Below are positions 4,793-15,294 of a DNA stretch of 21,446 nucleotides, one piece after another. Below the pieces are notes generated by a model, which ran no database searches, had not been told where the DNA came from, and saw only the letters and a program-made list of their open reading frames with translations. Within the stretch, counting starts at the first letter, position 1, and the number at the start of each line of letters is the position of its first letter. The translations under genes and the position numbers were made by a program. The DNA is taken from the IMG/VR virus record IMGVR_UViG_3300025671_000640, positions 1-21,446 of that record; one strand, written 5' to 3'. The stretch is from a virus.

Positions 4793-4942
4793 TTACTTCT
4801 TCTTAGCAGTCTTAGCTGCCTTCTTAAATTGAGCAGCCGTAGGAGCACCTTCGCTTCCTGGCTTCCTCATCTTCTCACCAGACCCTTGTTTAATTCTCAT
4901 CCGTTTTGCATGGATGTTTGCGTAGAGACCACGTTTAGCCAT
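4793..4942 (-). CDS. Conserved small basic phage protein (YANIHAKR type)
   Basis: A 49-residue, Lys/Arg-rich protein: [17 protein letters not shown], then GSGEKMRKPGSEGAPTAAQF and a Lys-rich end. From memory, the pattern LYANIHAKR...GSGEKMRKPGS.GAPT is very widespread in cyanophage and other marine phage genomes, always as a short protein of unknown function. The high charge would suit nucleic-acid or capsid contact, which is inference. Its ATG overlaps the psbA stop codon (TAATG), so it is probably translated by coupling to psbA. Confidence 0.8.
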   Translation of the reverse strand: MAKRGLYANIHAKRMRIKQGSGEKMRKPGSEGAPTAAQFKKAAKTAKKK

Positions 4943-5997
4943 TAGCCAATCACCGGGGCTGTGTGTGTAGCAAGATCAAGGGGGAAGTTGTGAGCGTTGC
5001 GCTCGTGCATCACCTCAAAGCCGAGGTTAGCTCGGTTGAGAATGTCTGCCCAGGTGTTAACGACACGACCATCAGAAGATACCAGTGATTGATTGAAGTT
5101 AAACCCATTCAGGTTGAACGCCATAGTAGATACGCCAAGAGCAGCGAACCAAATACCCACCACTGGCCAAGCAGCAAGGAAAAAGTGCAGAGAGCGACTA
5201 TTATTAAAACTTGCGTACTGGAAAATGAGACGCCCAAAATATCCGTGGGCAGCCACGATGTTATAGGTCTCTTCCTCTTGGCCAAACTTGTAACCATAGT
5301 TCTGGCTTTCCGTTTCAGTAGTTTCACGTACAAGTGAGGACGTAACAAGTGAACCGTGCATCGCACTAAATAGCGACCCACCAAATACCCCAGCGACACC
5401 GAGCATGTGGAACGGGTGCATGAGGATGTTATGTTCGGCTTGGAAAACGAGCATATAGTTGAAGGTACCCGATATACCGAGAGGCATAGCATCGGAGAAA
5501 CTACCCTGACCAAACGGGTAGACAAGGAAAACTGCCGTGGCGGCAGCGACTGGTGCTGAGTATGCGACACAAATCCAGGGCCTCATCCCTAGTCGATAGC
5601 TAAGTTCCCACTCTCGTCCCATGTAAGCATAGATGCCAATGAGGAAGTGGAAGACGGTAAGCTGGAAAGGACCGCCGTTGTAGAGCCATTCATCAAGTGA
5701 ATTAGCTTCCCAAATTGGGTAGAAGTGTAGTCCGATGGCATTGCTGCTCGGAACGACGGCTCCCGATATGATGTTGTTTCCATAAAGAAGAGAGCCAGCA
5801 ACAGGCTCACGAATGCCATCAATGTCCACCGGAGGTGCAGCAATGAAAGCGATAATAAAACAAATGGCTGCAGCAAGGAGACACGGAATCATCAGTGTCC
5901 CAAACCAGCCGACATAAAGACGGTTATCTGTACTGGTTACCCAATCGCAGAAGTCGTCCCAAAGATTTTTAGTTTGGGGTTGTGCAATAGTAACCAT
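4942..5997 (-). CDS. psbA: Photosystem II reaction-centre protein D1 (phage psbA)
   Basis: A complete D1 of 351 residues, five transmembrane helices, thylakoid membrane. Residue numbers are one lower than standard. The redox tyrosine YZ (Y160), the manganese-cluster ligands (D169, E188, H331, E332, H336, D341, and Ala343 as processed C-terminus), the chlorophyll ligand H197, the iron ligands H214 and H271, and S263 in the plastoquinone pocket are all present. Position 129 is Glu (GREWELS), the form called D1:2 or high-light in cyanobacteria. The tail after the cleavage site (THTAPVIG) is short. Phage D1 is known to replace fast-decaying host D1 and keep photosynthesis running during infection. 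The gene sits between scaffold and capsid, as in other T7-like cyanophages that carry it. It is intact. Confidence 0.99.
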
Positions 5998-6002
5998 TGA
6001 AG

Positions 6003-6299
6003 TTAGTTAAGACGAGTTACTTTGACTTGTCCAACTCCAGAACCAGTGAGACCGATAGCATCAGCCGCACCTTTACTTAGATCTAGATTCCTACCATGAA
6101 TGTAAGGACCACGATCATTTACCCGAACAACGGCACACCGCTTGAAACATACACGAAGTTTAGTTCCAAAGGGTAGTGTCTTGTGCGCTGTAGTAAGGGC
6201 GTTTTGATTATATCGTTCACCGTTAGCAGTAAGGTTACCATGGAAGCCAGGACCATACCAACTAGCGATCACCGATAGAGTAGTTAGAACAGGAATCAT
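6003..6299 (-). CDS. RlpA-like double-psi beta-barrel protein
   Basis: A 98-residue protein almost wholly made of an RlpA-like domain: [47 protein letters not shown] and [14 protein letters not shown]. In bacterial RlpA this fold cleaves glycan strands that lack stem peptides; the acidic residues of NGE and NDRGP correspond to those needed for activity. The ATG at 6299 leaves a bare hydrophobic start ([12 protein letters not shown]). The frame stays open upstream, and an ATA at 6323-6321 with AGGAG eight bases before it would add MKVLRFII, making a proper signal peptide. The role may be cell-wall remodelling or lysis (inference). It sits 5 bases before psbA. Confidence 0.82.
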
Positions 6300-6433: not shown

Positions 6434-6604
6434 TTAGAATACTCCAGGAATAATTTGACCAGTTACAATGTAAGCGCCAATAGCAGCCACGAAACCAAGC
6501 ATAGCAAGGCGACCATTAAGGAGTTCAGCACGTTCGTTATGAGGCACAGTGTAGTCTTTGTCAGTATACATGGTAGGTTCTTTAGCCCAAATGTTGGTGG
6601 TCAT
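6434..6604 (-). CDS. hli: High-light-inducible protein (Hli)
   Basis: A 56-residue one-helix protein of the chlorophyll a/b-binding superfamily. The signature ERAELLNGRLAMLGFVAAIG carries the conserved Glu, Asn and Arg that bind chlorophyll, and the end TGQIIPGVF is typical of cyanophage Hli. It should insert in the thylakoid membrane and protect photosystems from excess light, alongside phage D1. Its ATG overlaps the scaffold stop (TAATG), so it is likely translated with the scaffold gene. It is short but typical for phage Hli. Confidence 0.95.
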   Translation of the reverse strand: MTTNIWAKEPTMYTDKDYTVPHNERAELLNGRLAMLGFVAAIGAYIVTGQIIPGVF

Positions 6605-11951: not shown

Positions 11952-12341
11952 TTAAACAAGATCAGTAAGTGTGGGTTCTTTATAGTTCGGTCCCTTTAGA
12001 ACCTTACCGTCTTCACGGCGAATAGGTTGCCCATCCTCATCAAGCTTACTCATGTTGCTTTGGTGGACACGATTGAGAGCTTCATCAAGATCCCAACCAA
12101 GGTTTTCTGCATATTGATAGCAGACATAAACTAGGTCAGCTAGTTCCTTTAGACACTCAGTTGCGTTAACACGGAGACCCATGATGAGTTGATTCTCAGA
12201 GTCTAGGAACTCTTTAAACTCCTCAACGATCAAACTCCGTTGCATAGTCCGTGAAGCTGGACTCGTACTGTTCCTGACCTGGAAACTTTTCCTGAACTCC
12301 TTTGCTTGGACGCTGATAAAGGATTTGGCTTTCAAGCTCAT
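11952..12341 (-). CDS. MazG-like nucleotide pyrophosphohydrolase
   Basis: A 129-residue all-alpha NTP-pyrophosphohydrolase of the MazG/PRA-PH type. The metal-binding helices are visible as RSLIVEEFKEFLDSENQ and LKELADLVYVCYQYAENLGW, followed by NRVHQSNMSKLDEDGQPI and KGPNYKEP, a tail shared with phage members. It hydrolyses nucleoside triphosphates to monophosphates; in phage it may alter nucleotide pools or the host stringent signal. The start at ATG 12341 is kept because VQAKEFRKSFQV aligns with the first helix of the family. This makes the gene overlap the DUF3310 gene by 119 bases in another frame. An ATG at 12245 would shorten it but lose that helix. The RNR gene follows after 2 bases. 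Confidence 0.85.
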   Translation of the reverse strand: MSLKAKSFISVQAKEFRKSFQVRNSTSPASRTMQRSLIVEEFKEFLDSENQLIMGLRVNATECLKELADLVYVCYQYAENLGWDLDEALNRVHQSNMSKLDEDGQPIRREDGKVLKGPNYKEPTLTDLV

Positions 12342-12522
12342 TTTGTAGATAGTGGATTGCTTTAGTGAGGTCTTCTACTTTGCTGTCTTTGTAACCAGCA
12401 CGGCAGATATATTTGATGGCATTACCAAGATGGAAGTTCAGTCCTTGGTCTCGGATGAAATCCCAGACTTCTACTGCCCCTCGCTTGTAGTAGCTTGGAC
12501 CTTGGAGGTTGGAGTGGGCCAT
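12223..12522 (-). CDS. DUF3310 family protein
   Basis: A 99-residue protein. The block YKRGAVEVWDFIRDQGLNFH, then LGNAIKYICRAGYKDSK and DLTKAIHYLQNEL is the DUF3310 signature, frequent in phages and of unknown biochemical role. The last 37 residues lie beyond the domain and are encoded in the stretch shared with the MazG-like gene. The start ATG at 12522 lies inside the nblA-like gene (52-base overlap). Neighbours suggest a link to nucleotide metabolism, but that is context only. Confidence 0.85.
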   Translation of the reverse strand: MAHSNLQGPSYYKRGAVEVWDFIRDQGLNFHLGNAIKYICRAGYKDSKVEDLTKAIHYLQNELESQILYQRPSKGVQEKFPGQEQYESSFTDYATEFDR

Positions 12523-12725
12523 TTCTTAACTAGGTTAGACATTGAATTACTAAGCACAAAGCACTGACGCTGTAGTGCAAGGAATATTGTGATTACATCT
12601 TCCAGTTTTGTTTCTGGATGACGTAGTGCATTTTCAATCTGTTTGAGTTTGAACTCTTGCTCCATTGTCAGCGTGACAATCGGGGCTGGGAGTCCAAAGT
12701 CTTGGTTCTTGATTGGTGAAATCAT
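12471..12725 (-). CDS. nblA: NblA-like phycobilisome degradation adaptor
   Basis: An 84-residue protein. The core TLTMEQEFKLKQIENAL (18-34) matches the NblA opening L-S/T-L-EQEFKL, and the second half IFLALQRQCFVLSNSMSNLV followed by KKW matches the long helix ending in LLKxxW. NblA is about 60 residues, an antiparallel helix pair that links phycobiliproteins to Clp protease. Phage copies are known and are active in at least one uncultured marine cyanophage, to my recollection. Here 17 residues precede the core and 14 follow it. ATG 12725 is chosen (a GTG lies 3 codons upstream). It overlaps the exonuclease gene by 92 bases and DUF3310 by 52. It would free amino acids and change light harvesting in the host. 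The similarity is short, so the call needs a profile search. Confidence 0.68.
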   Translation of the reverse strand: MISPIKNQDFGLPAPIVTLTMEQEFKLKQIENALRHPETKLEDVITIFLALQRQCFVLSNSMSNLVKKWPTPTSKVQATTSEGQ

Positions 12726-13401
12726 AGTCTTCACATTGAAGGATCTTTGCTAGTCGTGCATTTTGCAATGCAACTGACTCATCGAGACCCTTCTCCATGA
12801 AGGCATCTACGACAGTCTTCCAGTTATCACCTTTCTCTGCTAGAAGTGCTGCTGCACGTTTTACACCAATACCAGGGACACCAGCGTAACCATCAGTCTG
12901 ATCACCAGCCATTGTTTGAATAAGATGCCAACGGTAACCCTCTTCGGGAGTAATGGTCACTACTTCCTGGGTGAAGTCGTATAACTCACCAGGAATCTGT
13001 CGCATATCTTTATCAGGACTGCAGATGATATGACCTGGTTCTTTAGTGGCGTAGATGCCCATTGCATCATCAGCTTCAAGAGTAGGCATGATCACCACAT
13101 GGTAGTCTTCCTTGAGTTTATTGATGACCCTTTTGTAGCCGCACGGTTTCTTTCTATTACGGTGTCCTTTATAAGCTGGGTCAATAGATTTACGAAAGTT
13201 GATACTATCAGAAAAGAACAAAATAGAATCATCAAAACATCCAAGGTCAGAAGCGATGTTGTAGAGTTCTCGTTCAACGTATTTATAAGCTTCTGAGAAT
13301 TGGGAGGTGACGACGATAACATCTTCTCCGAAATCAATTTCAGTTTCTGTTCCGGCACAACACTTATAGACGATATAATCCGCATCTATTAAAAGGCTCA
13401 C
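12634..13401 (-). CDS. 5'-3' exonuclease, FEN/T7 gp6-like
   Basis: A 255-residue nuclease of the PIN/FEN superfamily. The first strand LLIDADYIVYK holds D6 and D8; LEADDAMGIY and SPDKDMRQI supply further metal-binding acids; GDQTDGYAGVPGIGVKRAAA is the helix-hairpin-helix DNA-binding part. In T7 the matching gp6 removes RNA primers and degrades host DNA. The start is GTG at 13401, supported by the 4-base GTGA overlap with the upstream gene's stop and by the position of the first strand. No ATG lies nearer. The 3' end overlaps the nblA-like gene. Confidence 0.93.
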   Translation of the reverse strand: MSLLIDADYIVYKCCAGTETEIDFGEDVIVVTSQFSEAYKYVERELYNIASDLGCFDDSILFFSDSINFRKSIDPAYKGHRNRKKPCGYKRVINKLKEDYHVVIMPTLEADDAMGIYATKEPGHIICSPDKDMRQIPGELYDFTQEVVTITPEEGYRWHLIQTMAGDQTDGYAGVPGIGVKRAAALLAEKGDNWKTVVDAFMEKGLDESVALQNARLAKILQCEDYDFTNQEPRLWTPSPDCHADNGARVQTQTD

Positions 13402-13546: not shown

Positions 13547-14815
13547 TTAGTGTACATCTGCCCAGGTCTGACCTACCTTAGCTTCCGCTTCGATAGGGAT
13601 TCTCAGGTTATAAGTTTCCCCAGCCATCAGGGCAGATAATGTTAGTGCTGAAGAAAGTGTATCAGAATATTCAGGTGGACATTCAAACTGCACCTCATCA
13701 TGCACAAATGCTAGTTGGTGTGCATTAATTTCACACGTTTTGATTGTATCGTGAATGTGAATCATCCACTGTTTAGCTACAATACCTGCGCTCCCTTGGA
13801 GTAGGTAGTTAAGGGCTTTGTGGCTACCATCAACAGTGCAGCGGCGACCGTCACACAGGTTAATGTAACCAGATTCCGCTTTGGACTTAACCGCAGTAAC
13901 CAGTTTCTCAAGTCCTGGAATTGCATCCATGTAAGCTTGACGTATCTCAGCCCCTTTCTTTTTAGCGGCTTGCGGCGATAGTTGTGGGTCATAAGATAAT
14001 CCGATCTTGTGGTCACCGGCTCCGTACAGAAAGGCATAAGTTACAGTCTTTACTAGACGACGAGAGATTCCAATCTTATCTGCATTTTCTTGGTGAATGT
14101 CACCGTTGAGAAGAACGTCACCGTACCTGCCTCCATCATATCGGGCAAGGTAGTGTGCGAGCATCCGTAGTTCAATCCCTGCGAGATCAGCACCAACCAT
14201 GACATGGCCAGGGCTAGCGCGGAATAGCTTTCTAAATTCAAGATCACTAGGTACCTGTGCTAAGTTTGGATTGCGGTGAGCACATCGAAATGTGTTCGTA
14301 GCAACAGAGCAGTGGTGATGGATACGATTGTTTCGTACCAGCTTTAGCCAAGCGTTGTTACCTTCAGACAACATACCAAGCTTTTTGGTTGTCTCAAAGC
14401 AACATAAGAACTGCAGAGCTTCCTCTGTGCCTATGTCCTTGAGTGTTGTCTCATCAATCACCGCCTTGCCAGTGTTGGTTGTTTTATCAGGTTTCCAACC
14501 ATGATGTGTTTTCATGATCCAGGCAATGTGATCACGACTGGTAGGGCTGAACTCCTTCAGTCTAGTGAAAGTAGCTCCGGCGATGTATCCTTGGGTTCGA
14601 TTAGGTCGTTTAGGAGTAAACTCCGGTCCAGCAACGTAAGGGTACCGCTTCCGTAGTAGCTGATTAAGATTATCAAGCTCGGTATAGAGAGTTTGTGCAA
14701 GTTCCCATGCAGCTGGCTCATCAAAAAACCATCCATGTAATTCTTGCTCGGTGAGGATTTCTGCGACACGATGCTCTAGTGCGATCCATTTAGGAATGGT
14801 TGAAAGTGTTTCCAA
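13547..14815 (-). CDS. DNA polymerase, polymerase domain (family A, T7 gp5-like), split gene
   Basis: A 422-residue frame holding the whole polymerase domain. Motif A is GADLAGIELRMLAHY (D210), the O-helix carries R252, K256 and Y260 (matching T7 R518, K522, Y526), and motif C is FVHDEVQF (H372-D373-E374). The first part IALEHRVAEILTEQELHGWF follows directly on the exonuclease domain in T7, but here it is in a different frame. The only start is TTG at 14815, as a TAA lies two codons upstream. The thioredoxin-binding loop, about 76 residues in T7, is cut to about 30 (residues 58-90). The domain looks functional. It may be a true separate subunit, a product of frameshifting, or a sequencing artefact. 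Confidence 0.93.
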   Translation of the reverse strand: METLSTIPKWIALEHRVAEILTEQELHGWFFDEPAAWELAQTLYTELDNLNQLLRKRYPYVAGPEFTPKRPNRTQGYIAGATFTRLKEFSPTSRDHIAWIMKTHHGWKPDKTTNTGKAVIDETTLKDIGTEEALQFLCCFETTKKLGMLSEGNNAWLKLVRNNRIHHHCSVATNTFRCAHRNPNLAQVPSDLEFRKLFRASPGHVMVGADLAGIELRMLAHYLARYDGGRYGDVLLNGDIHQENADKIGISRRLVKTVTYAFLYGAGDHKIGLSYDPQLSPQAAKKKGAEIRQAYMDAIPGLEKLVTAVKSKAESGYINLCDGRRCTVDGSHKALNYLLQGSAGIVAKQWMIHIHDTIKTCEINAHQLAFVHDEVQFECPPEYSDTLSSALTLSALMAGETYNLRIPIEAEAKVGQTWADVH

Positions 14816-15294
14816 AGTTTAGTCGTAACAACAACGTCTTGTACCATATAATCTTGCATCTCTTGACTCCATTCTTTCCAATCTGCTGTCTTTCCAAACT
14901 CTCCTTTATATTCACCTAATCGATACCCATAGGCTTCAAGAGAATGGCGACCATAAAGTTGGAGAGGCATGTTCTTCCAATTTCTTTTCTGATCGGTCTT
15001 CAGAATATCAGCATGACATATGCGGCTGAGAACAAGAGTATCAAGAACGAGACCACTCCTGTCAAACCAGGGAAAAAGTTTACGAATGACAGGTATATCA
15101 TAATTGATAATGTTATGCCCGACAATACAGTCAGCGTCTTCAAGCCTTTGTATCCCACGGACAATCGGTTCAGTATTCCCCTCATCATTGTAGACAAGGG
15201 TTTTGTCAGTCTCCGTATCATAGATGCCAAGACAGTGAATGTGGGTAACATCATGAACGAGTCCGTTCGATTCCAGATCAAAAATTAGCGTCAT
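14776..15294 (-). CDS. DNA polymerase 3'-5' proofreading exonuclease domain, split gene
   Basis: A 172-residue protein equal to the exonuclease domain of T7 gp5. The metal ligands are D6 and E8 (FDLESNGL), D66 (GHNIINYD) and D153 (YMVQDVVVT), so proofreading should be active. HSLEAYGYRLGEYKG is also typical. The stop TAG at 14776-14778 ends the frame 40 bases inside the polymerase-domain frame; together the two make about 580-594 residues against 704 for T7. If both are translated, they would have to bind each other. ATG start at 15294. Confidence 0.93.
   Translation of the reverse strand: MTLIFDLESNGLVHDVTHIHCLGIYDTETDKTLVYNDEGNTEPIVRGIQRLEDADCIVGHNIINYDIPVIRKLFPWFDRSGLVLDTLVLSRICHADILKTDQKRNWKNMPLQLYGRHSLEAYGYRLGEYKGEFGKTADWKEWSQEMQDYMVQDVVVTTKLWKHFQPFLNGSH

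What the first reader, a model, noticed from the sequence alone, without database searches (positions are those of the whole stretch)
12471..12725. NblA-like adaptor gene wedged between exonuclease and DUF3310
The core TLTMEQEFKLKQ and the end SNLVKKW fit NblA, which delivers phycobilisomes to Clp protease. The gene overlaps both neighbours and is easy to miss or call as noise. If real, the phage would both keep photosystem II alive (psbA, hli) and dismantle the antenna. The 17-residue front and 14-residue tail are unlike ordinary NblA of about 60 residues.
Basis: partly seen in the sequence, partly recalled or inferred. Interest (0 to 1): 0.8.

Follow-up and report, generated by a model that had tools for sequence, protein, structure and literature searches.

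The report
NblA-like antenna-degradation gene in cyanophage
A small, easily overlooked gene in a T7-like virus of cyanobacteria encodes a relative of NblA, the protein with which cyanobacteria have their own light-harvesting antenna destroyed; the same gene type was already reported in related viruses, so this confirms a known kind rather than a new one.

Summary
A gene of 84 codons (ATG 12725, stop ending 12471, minus strand) overlaps the exonuclease by 92 nt and DUF3310 by 52 nt. Its own middle part shows protein-level selection: pN/pS 0.27 in 101 relatives, against 1.29 and 2.88 in the other frames.

It belongs to the NblA family. The window protein alone misses Pfam's NblA cut-off (18.1 versus 25 bits), but orthologues pass it (S-TIP37 type, 27.8 bits), and a PDB search with the family profile puts four solved NblA sequences at ranks 1, 2, 3 and 5 of 7. 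The core is predicted as a confident helix-loop-helix (pLDDT 94.5). Foldseek found no NblA, which is inconclusive for two helices.

The gene occurs in 37 phage records by tblastn, plus a diverged copy in P-GSP1. Papers citing Nadel 2019 and 2025 already report nblA in cyanopodoviruses, so this is a new member of a known kind. Antenna degradation by this protein is inferred. Open puzzle: the gene is also under selection in contig sets around the Prochlorococcus phages P-SSP7 and NATL1A-7, although Prochlorococcus lacks phycobilisomes.

The parts
12471..12725 (-). NblA-like gene, 84 aa from ATG 12725 (core helix-loop-helix = residues 12-71, window 12513-12692)
   Evidence: ORF; selection and frame tests; Pfam NblA 18.1 bits; family-level homology; AlphaFold models
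12523..12633 (-). part of the gene that overlaps no neighbour (111 nt)
   Evidence: coordinates; pN/pS 0.27 here
12634..13401 (-). T7-like 5'-3' exonuclease, overlapping the front of the NblA-like gene by 92 nt
   Evidence: PHROG 107 exonuclease; Pfam PF02739
12223..12522 (-). DUF3310 gene ('nucleotide kinase' in several phage records), overlapping the tail of the NblA-like gene by 52 nt
   Evidence: Pfam PF11753 E 1.6e-14
11952..12341 (-). MazG-like nucleotide pyrophosphohydrolase
   Evidence: PHROG 671; Pfam PF12643
6434..6604 (-). hli, high-light-inducible protein
   Evidence: PHROG 178 E 1.6e-25
4942..5997 (-). psbA, photosystem II D1 protein
   Evidence: PHROG 182 E 2.2e-193; Pfam PF00124

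Best explanation
The gene encodes a phage NblA. Made during infection, it most likely forms a helical dimer, binds phycobiliproteins through its C-terminal end and the ClpC chaperone through the conserved N-terminal LTxEQxF motif, and so delivers the host's phycobilisome to the Clp protease. The gain would be amino acids for phage proteins and less light load, while phage psbA and hli keep photosystem II working. Shown here: a real, selected gene; NblA homology at family level; a predicted helix-loop-helix; the same slot in many related phages. Inferred from the NblA family: expression in infection, dimer, ClpC and phycobiliprotein binding, phycobilisome loss, benefit to the phage.
For: Selection on the frame. 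NblA is the sole Pfam family listed for the window protein; 2 of 10 further members scanned pass the cut-off (L208, identical to S-TIP37's, 27.8 bits; L231 25.5) and 76 of 118 members hit it at E<=0.1. PDB profile search: 3cs5 E 0.0015, 2q8v 0.14, 1ojh 0.42, 2qdo 0.76, ranks 1, 2, 3 and 5 of 7 distinct sequences. Profile-profile E 1.2e-5 and 1.4e-5, probability about 80%; the best of 100 shuffles scores 21.0 against 30.8. Reciprocal search of 15 cyanobacterial genomes with the phage profile: 7 of 8 places are NblA genes above the Pfam cut-off. Core model pLDDT 94.5, pTM 0.65, helices 10-24 and 30-57. Nearest records by DNA are phages of Synechococcus CB0101. Phage nblA genes from freshwater phages and marine metagenomes cause phycobilin loss when expressed in cyanobacteria (PMC9602691, section 10).
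Against: The window protein alone misses the Pfam cut-off (18.1 versus 25 bits) and has no NCBIfam hit. 5 of the 10 members have no NblA hit at E<=0.1, among them the P-SSP7-identical L288 and the WH11-B-identical L446. Foldseek listed no NblA for either model. The phage profile A2 finds NblA in 7 of 15 genomes that all have it; the smaller profile A1 rang in 17 of 292 cyanobacterial genomes, although Pfam NblA rang in 59 of the 146 scanned. The gene is under selection around Prochlorococcus phages too, whose hosts lack phycobilisomes (PMC7439483 passage). No binding or bleaching was tested.
Confidence: 0.85

Rival explanations
1. An NblA-derived Clp adaptor whose cargo has changed: it keeps the helix-loop-helix and the ClpC-side motif but delivers some other host protein, with phycobilisome loss secondary or absent.
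For: Purifying selection of similar strength in the contig sets fetched with P-SSP7 and NATL1A-7 (pN/pS 0.24 and 0.22) although Prochlorococcus lacks phycobilisomes and nblA (PMC7439483 passage). P-GSP1, a phage of Prochlorococcus MED4, keeps a strongly diverged copy in the same slot, with HQ for EQ and without the usual end of helix 2 (E 4.6e-16 to the family profile).
Against: The window phage lies nearest to phages of Synechococcus CB0101 and keeps the EQ motif and the W. Hosts of the uncultured contigs are unknown; P-SSP2, listed with a Synechococcus host, carries the gene too. Lack of a Pfam NblA hit does not separate hosts: the Synechococcus phage WH11-B type has none either. Prochlorococcus keeps some phycoerythrin (recalled).
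Confidence: 0.1
2. A small helical phage protein unrelated to NblA that resembles it by chance, since short amphipathic helix pairs match many profiles.
For: Single-sequence Pfam score below cut-off; no NblA from Foldseek; 15 other families get weak hits from 1 to 4 members each.
Against: NblA dominates the Pfam hits (76 of 118 members; next best 4 of 118); four NblA sequences lead or nearly lead the PDB profile search; shuffled controls do not reach the score; reciprocal hits land on NblA genes.
Confidence: 0.04
3. No gene: a chance open frame in the overlap of exonuclease and DUF3310.
For: Overlaps both neighbours and is not annotated in 12 of 18 phage loci that hold it.
Against: pN/pS 0.27 in its own stretch and stops in the other frames in 100 and 99 of 101 relatives; low pN/pS in three further sets.
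Confidence: 0.005

Closest known systems
nblA of cyanopodoviruses (predicted in 14 strains by Nadel et al. 2019, as told in PMC9602691 section 10; Nadel et al. 2025, Nature 648:434-442, known here only from citing papers)
   Same: NblA-like protein of T7-like cyanophages. In the isolates fetched here (S-TIP37, P-SSP7, S-CBP1, S-CBP3, S-CBP4, NATL1A-7 and others) it lies in the slot after the exonuclease. Which strains Nadel named I have not seen.
   Different: This copy comes from an uncultured IMG/VR record, is 80-81% identical to the nearest isolate found (DSL-LC07) and ends 11 codons earlier than 123 of 162 genes compared.
Cyanobacterial NblA (Pfam PF04485; PDB 3cs5, 2q8v, 1ojh, 2qdo)
   Same: About 60-aa helix-loop-helix core, L-[ST]-x-E-Q-x-[FL] motif at the start of helix 1, a Q in helix 2, W just after it in many.
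   Different: About 20% identity; two extra loop residues in the window's type; 18 residues before the motif against a median of 6 in 29 host proteins; low-confidence tail.
NblA of freshwater cyanophages Ma-LMM01, MaMV-DC, PaV-LD
   Same: Phage-borne NblA; expression accompanied by phycobilin decline (PMC9602691 section 10).
   Different: In the tree described in that section they are distant from the marine and estuarine cyanophage nblA genes; I did not compare their sequences.

Membership tests
NblA (PF04485) | Shares the NblA sequence profile at family level | tested here: met
   The window protein by itself scores 18.1 bits, under Pfam's detection cut-off of 25; 2 of 10 further members scanned pass it.
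NblA (PF04485) | Core of about 60 residues folded as helix-loop-helix | tested here: met
   Predicted, not solved: helices 10-24 and 30-57 of the 60-aa core, mean pLDDT 94.5, pTM 0.65; full length gives helices 21-34 and 41-68, mean pLDDT 80.3.
NblA (PF04485) | Structural match to a solved NblA | tested here: inconclusive
   Foldseek and VIA-align listed no NblA for either model; no match of any kind had E<=0.001.
NblA (PF04485) | Conserved N-terminal motif, the side said to bind ClpC | tested here: met
   LTMEQEF in the window; L[TS]xEQx[FL] in 94 of 118 rows of A2 and 29 of 29 host proteins. The A2 count is biased upward: 11 loci with DQ were dropped beforehand by my EQ pattern, and P-GSP1 reads HQ. 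That a conserved N-terminal motif binds ClpC is from PMC4103541 passages, which do not give its letters.
NblA (PF04485) | Dimer packed as a four-helix bundle | not testable with these tools
   No complex prediction available.
NblA (PF04485) | Binds phycobiliproteins and ClpC and causes phycobilisome loss | not testable with these tools
   Needs binding and expression experiments.

The most novel reading that the evidence does not exclude
In part of this phage group, at least around the Prochlorococcus phages P-SSP7, NATL1A-7 and P-GSP1, the NblA-like protein has become a Clp adaptor for a target other than the phycobilisome, because the gene is kept there although the hosts have no phycobilisomes.
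Probability: 0.2. Interest if true: 0.65.

Novelty: new member of a known kind. Interest (0 to 1): 0.35.

Why it matters
A virus that props up photosystem II (psbA, hli) while stripping the antenna changes how much light infected picocyanobacteria harvest; a review citing Nadel et al. 2025 puts the global effect at up to 5% of photosynthetic light capture (PMC12892361 passage). The gene is short, overlaps both neighbours and is easily missed: of 18 phage loci examined that hold it, 12 have no annotation for it, 4 have it cut at an internal start, 2 (P-SSP7, P-GSP1) have it full length, and none calls it NblA. Its upkeep around Prochlorococcus phages poses a testable question about its target.

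Tried and rejected
Chance frame: rejected by pN/pS and by stops in the other frames. The GTG start at 12734: present in 62 of 140 genes with the aligned ATG, so less likely but not excluded. NCBIfam: no hit. PHROGs: best family phrog_27006, unknown function, E 4.5e-28. Fold search: Foldseek on both models against PDB, on the core against BFVD, and VIA-align gave nothing at E<=0.001 and no NblA. Promoter scan: no sigma-70-like site and one weak terminator-like site, within chance. Small ORFs in the same slot of P60, Syn5, S-CBP2 and S-CBP42 show no NblA similarity. Host source of the gene: not resolved; I built no tree. Three profile matches are not NblA places: G084 and G032, G293:C234. Seven further genomes were not cross-checked. 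A1 found NblA in G152 where A2 did not.

Rows dropped before counts: one search used 101 unique gap-free genes of 162 (EQ at residues 22-23 and W at 69 required). One search left out L095 (S-RIP1), frame-broken in its record. One search kept 463 of 479 loci; 11 were lost to my EQ pattern (they read DQ), the other 5 to lack of an ATG or of a stop inside the contig; unique proteins were then thinned to 118 representatives and the window replaced the near-identical L005. A3 used 113 of these 118. One search took sets by the query that fetched them, not by a tree, and left out L400-L525. All loci were fetched because they match, so their all having the gene (162 of 162, 479 of 479) is no independent evidence.

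Full report
What is there. On the minus strand an open frame runs from ATG 12725 to a stop ending at 12471 (84 aa). Its front overlaps the exonuclease gene (12634-13401) by 92 nt and its tail the DUF3310 gene (12223-12522) by 52 nt; only 12523-12633 is its own. Pfam and PHROGs confirm the neighbours, and psbA (4942-5997) and hli (6434-6604) elsewhere in the window. The window is a virus record of 21,446 bases. Among the rows listed by DNA search its best matches are S-CBP4 and S-CBP1, phages of Synechococcus CB0101.

Is it a gene. In 101 unique gap-free relatives (of 162 genes) the non-overlapping middle has pN/pS 0.27 in this frame, 1.29 and 2.88 in the shifted frames, and the shifted frames hold stops in 100 and 99 of 101. 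In the exonuclease overlap this frame is also the constrained one (0.34; 1.26 and 1.55 in the others). Sets of contigs fetched with other members agree: S-TIP37 0.17 (59 unique sequences), P-SSP7 0.24 (63), NATL1A-7 0.22 (12). In the P-SSP7 set one shifted frame scores 0.86, so the contrast there is smaller, though all 63 have stops in that frame.

What family. The window protein gets one Pfam family, NblA, E 0.0037 and 18.1 bits, under the 25-bit cut-off. Of 118 diverse members (window included) 76 hit NblA at E<=0.1, best 9e-9; the next family is hit by 4. In a separate scan of 10 members, L208 (identical to S-TIP37's, 27.8 bits) and L231 (25.5) pass the cut-off, 3 lie at 23.6-24.2, and 5 have no NblA hit: L288 (identical to P-SSP7's), L368 (95% identical to NATL1A-7's), L446 (identical to WH11-B's), L455 and L497. 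A profile of the 118 searched against all PDB sequences returns 7 distinct sequences at E<=10: 3cs5 (0.0015), 2q8v (0.14), 1ojh (0.42) and 2qdo (0.76), all NblA, and three versions of one other protein, Ssr1698 (0.53-1.2). Profile-profile comparison with 29 cyanobacterial NblA proteins gives E 1.2e-5, probability 81%, score 30.8; the best of 100 column shuffles scores 21.0 and the reversed profile 8.9; a second run gives E 1.4e-5.

Reciprocal search. The phage profile A2 scanned over 15 genomes of one cyanobacterial family found 8 places in 7 genomes; 7 of the 8 are NblA genes above the Pfam cut-off, while all 15 genomes have NblA. The smaller profile A1 rang in 17 of 292 cyanobacterial genomes; of the 9 of these that were also scanned with Pfam, 7 places are NblA. 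The similarity is specific but weak.

Structure. AlphaFold2 on the full protein with 118 rows gives helices 21-34 and 41-68, mean pLDDT 80.3, with a low-confidence tail; the 60-aa core with 113 rows has mean pLDDT 94.5 with helices 10-24 and 30-57. NblA is described as a helix-loop-helix forming four-helix bundles of dimers (PMC7966870 passages). Foldseek and VIA-align listed no NblA; nothing else matched either (best Foldseek E 1.6), so this is inconclusive.

Where else. tblastn finds the gene in 37 phage records, 33 named and 4 uncultured, with several records per phage. A search with the exonuclease (E<=1e-45, 58 records, all listed) shows the same 37 records at 58.8-82% exonuclease identity. 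P-GSP1 (2 records, 73% over a part) lacked a tblastn hit, but the family profile finds a diverged copy in its same slot (E 4.6e-16). In 8 phages with exonucleases at 40-56% identity (9515-10a, NATL2A-133, S-TIP28, SS120-1, S-CBP42, P60, Syn5, S-CBP2) the profile finds nothing convincing in the 5.6-5.7 kb around the exonuclease (best E 0.09); P-SSP6, P-SSP10 and P-SCSP-R27W were not scanned with the profile. So the gene looks like a trait of one exonuclease-defined group; no tree was built. S-RIP1's copy is frame-broken in its record. Of 18 phage loci looked at that hold it, 12 carry no annotation for it, 4 a version cut at an internal start, 2 a full-length unnamed protein.

How it probably works. 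[quoted passage not shown] a structural-mimicry model also exists (PMC4103541 passages; PMC7966870 passages). The window protein keeps LTMEQEF at the front and a Q in helix 2 and a W after it. I infer the same action here, with phage psbA and hli keeping photosystem II active. None of this was tested on this protein.

What is known. PMC9602691 (section 10 read) states that Nadel et al. 2019 predicted nblA in 14 cyanopodovirus strains and one myovirus and that marine and estuarine cyanopodovirus nblA form one cluster; phage nblA from freshwater phages and marine metagenomes gives phycobilin loss on expression. PMC12892361 (passage) summarises Nadel et al. 2025: many oceanic cyanophages encode NblA, estimated to lower global light capture by up to 5%. 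I could not read either Nadel paper (2025 sought; 2019 known only as a reference). The finding is therefore a new, sequence-divergent member of a known kind.

Open puzzle. P-SSP7, P-SSP3, NATL1A-7 and P-GSP1 are Prochlorococcus phages; Prochlorococcus lacks phycobilisomes and nblA (PMC7439483 passage), yet the gene is under selection in the sets around P-SSP7 and NATL1A-7, and P-GSP1 keeps a diverged copy. Hosts of the uncultured contigs are unknown. Retargeting, action on residual phycoerythrin (recalled), or mixed host ranges could explain it.

Noticed in passing
window 6003-6299 (-): RlpA-like double-psi beta-barrel gene (Pfam DPBB_1 E 2.8e-24) between hli and psbA; 85-91% identical in S-CBP4, S-CBP3, DSL-LC07 and S-CBP1, unannotated in some of their records. 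Possibly a cell-wall enzyme carried beside the photosynthesis genes.
   Followed up: partly
L288-L367 and L368-L399 (sets fetched with P-SSP7 and NATL1A-7): NblA-like gene under purifying selection (pN/pS 0.24 and 0.22) around Prochlorococcus phages, whose hosts lack phycobilisomes.
   Followed up: partly
L555:2975-3202 (P-GSP1, PRQG_00005): Strongly diverged NblA-like copy (E 4.6e-16 to the family profile) annotated as hypothetical protein, with HQ in place of EQ and a changed end of helix 2; the exonuclease before it is split over frames in this record.
   Followed up: partly
window 13547-14815 and 14776-15294 (-): DNA polymerase in two overlapping frames (polymerase and 3'-5' exonuclease parts), as annotated in P-SSP7 and S-TIP37 with a note on a split gene or frameshift.
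   Followed up: no
window 12634-12725: In the overlap the NblA-like frame is more constrained than the shifted frames (pN/pS 0.34 versus 1.26 and 1.55), so the exonuclease C-terminal tail may be free to vary.
   Followed up: partly
L095 (S-RIP1, NC_020867.1): The NblA-like gene is broken by a frame shift in this record, and the exonuclease match there also comes in two pieces; sequencing error or decay not told apart.
   Followed up: no
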